Assembly: GCF_000380185.1 (NCBI RefSeq)
Contig: NZ_KB904791.1
Coordinates: forward strand, 1 to 64,000
Source of the DNA: Thiofilum flexile DSM 14609
GTDB taxonomy: Bacteria; Pseudomonadota; Gammaproteobacteria; Thiotrichales; Thiotrichaceae
Length of the DNA stretch: 64,000 nucleotides
Direction: 5' to 3'
Part shown: one piece after another, positions 7,777 through 49,674 of the stretch
Position numbering within the stretch: the stretch's first letter is position 1
Layout: each line of letters begins with the position of its first letter
The notes under the pieces: generated by a model
The model's input: only the letters and a program-made list of their open reading frames with translations
What the model was told of the DNA's origin: nothing
The model's database searches: none
Made by a program: the position numbers and the translations under genes

Positions 7777-7867
7777 GCATCTTGCTGTAGCAGTCTGCTG
7801 AATAGGGATGCCAACTTATAGCGTATAAGGACGTATTTTTTTTACAACAGCCATGCAAGGAAGATGC
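7777..7867 (+). repeat. Degenerate copy of the dispersed hairpin repeat
   Basis: Contains a core similar to the repeats at 12.4, 15.8 and 49.6 kb (GCAGTCTG...GGGATGCC...TAGCGTATAAGGACGTATT). The outer arms GCATCTT and AAGATGC are complementary. The inner pairing is imperfect and the right side carries a T-rich insertion. It lies upstream of the META-domain gene. Confidence 0.55.
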
Positions 7868-12444: not shown

Positions 12445-12552
12445 GCCCGATAAGGGGGTATTTCTGGAGCAGTCTTGGCGGCATGGATGCCGCCTTGTAG
12501 CGTACAGGGATGTATTCACAGCGACTGCGGAAGAAATACCCCCTTATCGGGC
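12445..12552 (+). repeat. Dispersed hairpin repeat, copy A
   Basis: Perfect 21-bp inverted arms (12445-12465 and 12532-12552) enclose a core bounded by GCAGTC and GACTGC. Inside are a hairpin GGCGGCATGGATGCCGCC at 12477-12494 and the smaller TACAGGGATGTA at 12503-12514. The core is almost identical to copy C at 49.6 kb (two visible differences in 60 nt), but the outer arms are unrelated in their distal part. Located between modC and leuS. Confidence 0.9.
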
Positions 12553-15813: not shown

Positions 15814-15923
15814 GTAAACGTAGGTGAGTATTTCTGAGGCAGTGTTGGCGGTAGGAATGCCGACTGGTAGCGTATAAGGCTGTATTCACAGCGACTACGA
15901 AAGAAATACTCATCTATGTTTAC
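15814..15923 (+). repeat. Dispersed hairpin repeat, copy B
   Basis: 22-nt outer arms (15814-15835 and 15902-15923) are complementary except at two positions where G faces T, which would be G-U pairs in RNA. The core resembles copies A and C: GGCAGTGTTGGCGG, GGAATGCC, TAGCGTATAAGG, TGTATTCACAGCGAC. The distal arm sequence is unrelated to the other copies. Confidence 0.88.
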
Positions 15924-49493: not shown

Positions 49494-49536
49494 AAAGCAC
49501 CTCTTGGGTTATTTGCACCAAAGAGGTGCTTTTTTG
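49494..49536 (+). terminator. Rho-independent terminator of lon
   Basis: 12-bp stem AAAGCACCTCTT / AAGAGGTGCTTT ending in a run of T residues, 56 bases after the lon stop. Confidence 0.92.
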
Positions 49537-49566: not shown

Positions 49567-49674
49567 AGAAAGTCAGTAGGTCTTTCTTCCGCAGTCTTGG
49601 CGGCATGGATGCCGCCTTGTAGCGTACAAGGACGTATTCACAGCGACTGCGGAAGAAAGACCTACTGACTTTCT
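49567..49674 (+). repeat. Dispersed hairpin repeat, copy C
   Basis: Perfect 30-bp inverted arms (49567-49596 and 49645-49674), including the shared GCAGTC/GACTGC, enclose the same core as copy A (GGCGGCATGGATGCCGCC, TAGCGTACAAGGACGTATT). The distal arm sequence differs from copies A and B but remains fully self-complementary. It sits between the lon terminator and ureE. Confidence 0.92.

What the first reader, a model, noticed from the sequence alone, without database searches (positions are those of the whole stretch)
12445..12552. Dispersed hairpin repeat with covarying arms
Copies at 12445-12552, 15814-15923 and 49567-49674 share a 60-nt core containing two small hairpins and a fixed GCAGTC/GACTGC-type closing stem. 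The distal arms of each copy are unrelated to those of other copies yet fully self-complementary (21, 22 and 30 bp), and copy B has two G-U pairs. This is strong evidence that the long stem matters rather than its sequence. A fourth, decayed copy lies at 7777-7867. All sit between genes. They could be a MITE or REP-like element, a processed RNA, or an mRNA-end stabiliser. I have an impression of similar GGATG-hairpin cores elsewhere in Gammaproteobacteria but cannot verify it.
Basis: seen in the sequence. Interest (0 to 1): 0.75.

Follow-up and report, generated by a model that had tools for sequence, protein, structure and literature searches.

The report
Mobile hairpin repeat with CsrA-like sites
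The window holds four copies of a mobile palindromic repeat, found in many Gammaproteobacteria, whose RNA would fold into a long stem carrying two small loops that match the docking sequence of the regulator CsrA, so a jumping element may be scattering docking sites for a global regulator.

Summary
Besides the decayed copy, the genome has 83 core matches and 4 further places with end and arm. The arms are not unrelated: they are one arm, aligned without gaps, changed on both sides at once. A covariance model built from other genomes finds the three window copies, Yersinia and Pectobacterium copies of the YPAL type, and 54 of 276 genomes of the class, own included. The nearest Rfam RNA, TwoAYGGAY, stays below its cut-off. 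The fold is a long stem of free sequence bearing two hairpins whose loops keep GGA. The second loop fits CsrA's SELEX consensus fully in 46 of 83 copies, and 20 bases usually separate the two GGA. Outer stems tolerate G-T but hardly A-C (104:14 in 88 stems from named genomes; 20:0 in 21 end-less copies here), so the GGA strand is the one that folds, whichever way neighbouring genes point. Best reading: a mobile element whose sense-strand RNA presents a double CsrA site. Binding and transcription are untested, and the lack of orientation bias relative to genes speaks against it. Main rival: a fold needed as single-stranded DNA.

The parts
12445..12552 (+). Copy A: outer arms 12445-12465 / 12532-12552 (21 bp), GGA/GGA internal loop, closing stem 12469-12474 / 12523-12528
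   Evidence: model R1 69.6 bits at 12457-12540
12477..12494 (+). Copy A hairpin 1, loop TGGA at 12484-12487
   Evidence: sequence, fold
12503..12514 (+). Copy A hairpin 2, loop GGGA at 12507-12510; 12502-12513 reads GUACAGGGAUGU, a full match to CsrA's SELEX consensus
   Evidence: sequence, fold, consensus from PMC7652899 passages
15814..15923 (+). Copy B: 22-bp outer stem with two G-T pairs; loop of hairpin 2 reads AGGC, so GGA is lost and this copy looks worn
   Evidence: R1 45.3 bits at 15827-15910
49567..49674 (+). Copy C: outer stem with the internal loop converted to perfect pairing (TCC against GGA)
   Evidence: R1 82.0 bits at 49579-49662
7777..7867 (+). Decayed copy D, core string intact at 7819-7837; lies between two ORFs of the minus strand
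   Evidence: not found by R1 at E up to 1

Best explanation
The repeats are copies of a mobile palindromic element of the kind known in Yersinia as YPAL/RU-2, a family spread over the Gammaproteobacteria (shown by sequence and fold). Its working form is the GGA strand folded on itself: a stem of about 20-30 bp of free sequence carrying two short hairpins, each with GGA in its loop (shown by paired changes and by the excess of G-T over A-C). As RNA, one copy would bind one CsrA dimer across both loops, the long stem holding and protecting the pair (inferred). Copies that have lost the recognisable ends have kept the fold, which suggests that some were retained as RNA sites near gene ends (inferred). 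Part of the paired change in the arms comes from copying one arm from the other at the DNA level (supported by four loop conversions), on top of selection for the fold.
For: 83 core matches, 0 in the reversed-pattern control, and 4 further places with end and arm. Model R1, built from 57 loci of named genomes, finds the three window copies, Yersinia similis (68.3 bits) and Pectobacterium (65.5), and 54 of 276 genomes of the class, own included. Paired changes: 90.2% of cells paired against 61.2% shuffled, covariation 0.711 against 0.168; in 29 distinct matches found by R1 in other loci 96.0% and 0.793 against 0.182, with hairpin 2 covarying too. Hairpin 1 keeps GGA in 57 of 57 aligned loci and in 121 of 128 of all named and same-family hits looked at, although the search pattern did not ask for it. 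Hairpin 2 fits RUACARGGAUGU fully in 46 of 83 own copies and ACANGGANGU in 80 of 83; 20 bases lie between the two GGA in 151 of 200 elements, inside the 10-63 nt that one CsrA dimer can bridge (PMC7652899 passages). G-T to A-C in the outer stem: 104:14 in named genomes, 71:13 here, and 16:2 and 16:3 in the copies antisense to both neighbours; 20:0 in the 21 end-less copies. The genome has one CsrA, with R44. CsrA is found in 53 of 54 genomes with the element and 189 of 222 without.
Against: No strand preference relative to genes: own copies ++20, --22, +-30, -+9, 2 unclear; named hits ++20, --17, +-15, -+6, 38 'inside' an ORF, 20 unclear of 116; same family ++6, --3, +-2, 5 unclear of 16. Many copies would need antisense or own transcription to make the GGA strand. 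No transcript was seen; the Yersinia sRNA model Ysr224 is the opposite strand. In predicted folds the GGA of hairpin 1 / hairpin 2 is open in 56 / 52 of 77 own copies, 83 / 37 of 101 named and 13 / 5 of 14 same-family ones; copy C prefers another fold. In the 57 aligned named loci the first consensus base (R) is C in 38 and U in 4, so the full 12-mer is mostly a feature of this genome. Inside one young family (Methylotuvimicrobium) the G-T excess is weak, 9 types to 3, p 0.15. The CsrA co-occurrence is not corrected for descent or genome size. Copy B has lost one GGA.
Confidence: 0.58

Rival explanations
1. The fold is needed as single-stranded DNA (or as an RNA intermediate) while the element moves; the GGA loops are read by a transposase or a partner, not by CsrA. 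Copies simply record the constraint on their parents.
For: G-T over A-C on the same strand whatever the direction of neighbouring genes; no strand preference relative to genes; recognisable ends in many copies; G-T is also better than A-C in DNA (established knowledge).
Against: Copies without the recognisable ends have the cleanest stems (WC 392, GT 20, AC 0, other 8 of 420 cells) although their arms differ most. The loops fit the CsrA consensus, and I know of no transposase that reads such loops (recalled). In Methylotuvimicrobium 2 of 30 left-end loci (L302, L328) are short units with no core, so a core is not required for ends to persist.
Confidence: 0.22
2. mRNA-end element: the stem blocks exonucleases or ends transcription in both directions, and the core is passenger.
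For: In this genome most copies lie within some tens of bases of a stop codon and 30 of 81 lie between convergent genes, against 4 of 28 other gaps in the window; arms mostly begin with A and end with T.
Against: A role read from both strands would not favour G-T over A-C on one strand; the two GGA loops would not be kept; in Methylotuvimicrobium no preference for gene ends is seen (++13, --9, +-12, -+14, 12 inside an ORF, 1 unclear of 61).
Confidence: 0.12
3. No selection: arms stay complementary only because replication copies one arm from the other (quasi-palindrome correction).
For: In 4 of 83 copies the GGA/GGA loop has become an exact complement of one side. Among end-less copies pairwise double transversions outnumber double transitions, 741 to 517.
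Against: Among copies with both ends the order is reversed, 188 to 303. Such copying treats both strands alike and would give G-T and A-C equally; observed 104:14 and 20:0. It does not explain GGA kept in loops of changing stems.
Confidence: 0.05

Closest known systems
YPAL / RU-2 repeats of Yersinia and Erwinia (De Gregorio 2006, not held; Delihas 2007, PMC2759123, passages and Table 1b)
   Same: Same core and architecture: the printed RU-2 carries two GGA hairpins and the string TACATGGATGTATTTACGGCG; model R1 scores Yersinia similis and Pectobacterium copies 68.3 and 65.5 bits. Many intergenic copies in Y. pestis (PMC2267715 passages).
   Different: YPAL is reported with target duplications of 3-26 bp and no TA ends (PMC2229807 passages); a subset of copies here has recognisable inverted ends. 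No CsrA link in the passages read.
TwoAYGGAY RNA motif, Rfam RF01731
   Same: Two GGA hairpins inside a closing stem with tandem G-A and a poorly conserved outer stem; proposed as CsrA-binding (PMC4333381 passages).
   Different: Copies score 31.7 and 28.5 bits against a cut-off of 43; listed for human gut, Gammaproteobacteria and Clostridiales as a probable RNA, not as a repeat (table row of PMC2864571).
Ysr224, Rfam RF02770
   Same: Matches the same elements in Yersinia similis and Pectobacterium (126.5 and 73.3 bits).
   Different: It models the opposite strand, which lacks the GGA loops.
CsrB / RsmZ sponge RNAs (recalled, and PMC7652899 passages)
   Same: GGA in hairpin loops, spaced so that a CsrA dimer can bridge them.
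   Different: Those are stable genes with many sites; this is a dispersed two-site repeat.
ERIC / RUP and other bacterial MITEs (PMC2229807 passages)
   Same: Short intergenic palindromes, TA at the ends.
   Different: Comparison by description only; sequences were not compared here.

Membership tests
YPAL / RU-2 | Conserved core sequence and fold | tested here: met
   R1 finds window copies and Yersinia/Pectobacterium copies alike; the printed RU-2 contains the core string
YPAL / RU-2 | No TA at the ends, inverted repeats internal | tested here: inconclusive
   of 81 copies 37 have both recognisable ends, 21 neither, 23 mixed; the flanking TA was read, not counted
YPAL / RU-2 | Target duplication of 3-26 bp, empty sites in relatives | not tested
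   only one species of the genus is held; an empty-site search elsewhere failed and was not repeated
TwoAYGGAY (RF01731) | Score over Rfam's cut-off of 43 bits | tested here: not met
   31.7 and 28.5 bits; none over cut-off in the window or in 18 loci; none in the genome, where the control rang in no genome either
TwoAYGGAY (RF01731) | Two GGA hairpins and tandem G-A in the stem | tested here: met
   GGA in hairpin 1 of 79 and hairpin 2 of 80 of 82 copies; GGA/GGA internal loop in 67 of 83
CsrA-binding RNA | GGA in hairpin loops fitting RUACARGGAUGU, two sites 10-63 nt apart | tested here: met
   46 of 83 full, 80 of 83 ACANGGANGU, 20 nt apart in 151 of 200 (PMC7652899 passages); openness of the second loop only partly predicted
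CsrA-binding RNA | Binds CsrA; is transcribed | not testable with these tools
   no expression or binding data
TA-type MITE | Inverted ends bounded by TA, same unit at unrelated loci | tested here: met
   Methylotuvimicrobium unit of about 162 bp, TATACC...GGGTATA, at 8 of 8 loci shown; similar but other ends in a subset here
TA-type MITE | Partner transposon with the same ends | tested here: inconclusive
   none seen in 30 loci with the left end, of 444 counted; transposase genes were not searched

The most novel reading that the evidence does not exclude
A mobile element family carries a strand-specific double CsrA site as its conserved cargo and in some genomes multiplies to dozens or more than 300 copies. 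It thereby titrates CsrA and drops ready-made Csr sites beside many genes; end-less copies with renewed but fully paired arms are ones the host has taken into use.
Probability: 0.33. Interest if true: 0.86.

Novelty: new variant of a known kind. Interest (0 to 1): 0.66.

Why it matters
It ties together a DNA repeat (YPAL), a resembling orphan RNA motif (TwoAYGGAY) and a counted 'sRNA' (Ysr224, the opposite strand), and gives a direct test of whether mobile DNA spreads binding sites for a global RNA regulator. It also warns that the antisense strand of such a repeat stands in Rfam as an sRNA family.

Tried and rejected
Insertion of a fixed core into host terminators or other palindromes: rejected, because arms have a fixed register and a shared consensus here, nearly the same arms recur at 8 unrelated loci in Methylotuvimicrobium, and the G-T excess does not follow the strand of the neighbouring gene.

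Integron attC and RAYT/IS200-type ends: set aside on anatomy as recalled (there the ends are conserved, here the core); no call tested them.

An apparent plus-strand bias of copies in the first part of the Methylotuvimicrobium chromosome was rejected as a listing limit: one search shows minus copies there, and the whole counts are 165 forward to 157 reverse.

Known phage or plasmid carriage: no match for copy C in plasmids or phages, none for L182 in plasmids; 3 hits in viral contigs, one of them reading like the printed RU-2.

Mutations inside one young family (Methylotuvimicrobium, 30 of 72 distinct copies usable): G-T 21 copies in 9 types, A-C 8 copies in 3 types, p 0.15 on types; not decisive.

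Limits of the counts: the 57-row alignment was chosen for having a stem at the expected place (57 of 116 hits), so its percentage paired is raised; without that choice 88 distinct stems came from 116 hits, with 16 below the score and 12 too near a contig end or duplicates, against 5 of 197 control places. The second alignment holds 32 matches (29 distinct) from 28 of the 32 loci then at hand, found by the model itself and so leaning towards its fold. One search scored at most 16 candidates a genome with strict filters, so copy numbers there are floors. Dropped rows: L062 (half lost) and L045 (one extra base); L062. The 38 'inside ORF' hits are probably spurious ORFs in GC-rich genomes, not checked. 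The base rate for gene-pair types rests on 28 gaps of one window; the other control (5 convergent of 44 gaps beside the copies) is biased by geometry. The match of element and CsrA by genome was read by eye from the two lists. The 4 extra places were recognised by position only, their cores not read.

Full report
What is there. Each of the three folds better than all of 200 shuffles, and the core string occurs four times in the window against 0.03 expected. The whole genome (3.79 Mb, the only species of its genus held) has 83 matches to a 28-base core pattern with up to 3 mismatches and none to its reversed control, and 4 further places with end and arm.

Anatomy. From the outside in: in a subset, ends TAAGTA...TACTTA with an 8-base spacer; an arm of mostly 20-22 bp; a GGA/GGA internal loop (67 of 83); a 6-bp closing stem; then two hairpins, GGCGGCA-NGGA-TGCCGCC and TACA-NGGA-NGTA. 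GGA is kept in hairpin 1 of 79 and hairpin 2 of 80 of 82 copies. Read outward from the core, the arms line up without gaps, so they are one arm that has changed on both sides, not unrelated sequence. In four copies (L030, which is copy C, and L031, L063, L069) the internal loop has become the exact complement of one side. That is the mark of one arm copied from the other, and is part of how the arms change together.

The family. A pattern from hairpin 2 hits at least 119 stretches in named genomes (the scan stopped at its limit), all but two titled as Gammaproteobacteria or taxa of it: Marinobacter, Microbulbifer, Halomonas, Stenotrophomonas, methanotrophs, Pectobacterium, Yersinia and others (the two are a Nitratireductor MAG and a 'Proteobacteria bacterium'). 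Of 116 hits analysed, 88 give distinct long outer stems (median 27 bp), against 5 of 197 control places 600 bases away. Between organisms the arms share almost nothing (pairwise identity 0.29-0.35 per block). A model of 57 of these loci finds the window copies at 82.0, 69.6 and 45.3 bits and the Yersinia and Pectobacterium copies at 68.3 and 65.5. It also finds matches in 54 of 276 genomes of the class, own included, in 49 of 215 genera. So the window repeat, and the Yersinia repeat printed as RU-2/YPAL (PMC2759123, passages and Table 1b), are one kind.

What is conserved. In the 57 loci, 513 cells are changed on both sides and the covariation score is 0.711, against 0.168 in shuffles and at most 0.141 when slid. 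Hairpin 1 varies in its stem but keeps GGA in 57 of 57, and in 121 of 128 of all named and same-family hits looked at, the 7 exceptions being listed; the search pattern did not contain it. Hairpin 2 was fixed by the pattern, so I looked at matches found by the model in other loci. There its stem covaries too (UA to CG and AU to CG in the upper pairs; C-G, G-C, U-A and A-U in the lower one), and by reading of the rows GGA stays. The model itself expects GGA, so this last point leans towards it.

Which strand. If the fold mattered on both strands alike or on neither, G-T and A-C mismatches in the stem would be equally common. They are 104 to 14 in named genomes, 71 to 13 here and 16 to 6 (p 0.05) in the same family. 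The excess is the same in copies that lie antisense to both neighbouring genes (16 to 2 named, 16 to 3 here). So the GGA strand is the one that folds, whichever way genes point. Among own copies with neither recognisable end (21), arms are only 62% alike and cores 92%, yet 412 of 420 cells pair, with G-T 20 and A-C 0; copies with both ends (37) have arms 88% alike and G-T 50, A-C 6. Inside one young family elsewhere the excess is weak (9 types to 3, p 0.15).

Reading. GGA in the loop of a small hairpin is the recognition element of CsrA. The review PMC7652899 (passages) gives the SELEX consensus RUACARGGAUGU and bridging by one dimer over 10-63 nt. Hairpin 2 fits it fully in 46 of 83 own copies and as ACANGGANGU in 80 of 83; the two GGA lie 20 nt apart in 151 of 200 elements. 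In the 57 named loci the first base is mostly C (38), so there the fit is to ACANGGAYGU rather than to the whole 12-mer. The genome has one CsrA with R44. Among 276 genomes CsrA is found in 53 of 54 with the element and 189 of 222 without (Fisher p 0.005), a weak point because descent and genome size are not removed. TwoAYGGAY was already proposed to bind CsrA (PMC4333381, passages).

Against it. There is no preference for the sense strand of genes, here or elsewhere. A role in RNA then needs transcription that does not follow the genes, or matters only in the copies that are read. The Rfam transcript family on such elements, Ysr224, is the other strand. It is called temperature-responsive and stands among the 20 most prevalent sRNAs in PMC9029176 (passages), and several of its copies were reported as transcripts in Y. 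ruckeri (PMC12112432 passage, which does not say on which strand). Predicted folds open both GGA in 52 of 77 own copies, 34 of 101 named and 4 of 14 same-family ones. A fold needed as single-stranded DNA during movement explains the strand signal equally well; I keep it as the main rival. What tips me to RNA is the fit to the CsrA consensus and the clean stems of end-less copies.

Mobility. In Methylotuvimicrobium the unit is about 162 bp, TATACC...GGGTATA, at 8 unrelated loci with nearly identical arms, which shows that arms travel with the element. There are 322 cores and 444 left ends, and some copies have lost the core by internal deletion. Ends differ between lineages while the core stays. 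Here, convergent gaps hold 30 of 81 classified copies against 4 of 28 other gaps of the window; in Methylotuvimicrobium no such preference is seen.

Print. Six exact core strings were searched; one occurs, in one paper of the library, the RU-2 paper. Searches for CsrA with repeats, sponges or MITEs, and for TwoAYGGAY and YPAL, gave no paper that joins them among those I looked into; not all hits were listed or opened (one search listed 20 of 123), the library is open-access only, and De Gregorio 2006 was not read. The kind is known; the union, the strand evidence and the CsrA reading of the mobile repeat appear new within these limits.

Noticed in passing
L194:7888-7994, L218:638-745: Rfam family Ysr224 (RF02770) is the opposite strand of the YPAL-type repeat, so a widely counted 'sRNA' lies on a repeat.
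   Followed up: partly
L009, L011, L051, L053, L061, L067, L069, L075, L079, L081: The core lies inverted relative to the end sequences (ACTTGAG on the left instead of GTAGGTATA), as if flipped through its own arms; read by eye.
   Followed up: no
L030, L031, L063, L069: The GGA/GGA internal loop is replaced by exact complementarity, a sign of arm-to-arm copying.
   Followed up: yes
L302, L328: Methylotuvimicrobium copies reduced to short units that keep the ends and lack the core.
   Followed up: partly
L323: A Methylotuvimicrobium copy with an extra perfect hairpin next to hairpin 1 and an altered core.
   Followed up: no
window 49494-49535: An ordinary terminator-like hairpin with a T run follows the Lon protease gene, just before copy C, so copy C may not be needed to end that transcript.
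   Followed up: no
G238: A genome with 9 element matches but no CsrA listed; the assembly is 98% complete in 270 contigs, so this may be a gap or a counter-example.
   Followed up: no
L334: A YPAL-type copy lies in a contig classed as viral.
   Followed up: no
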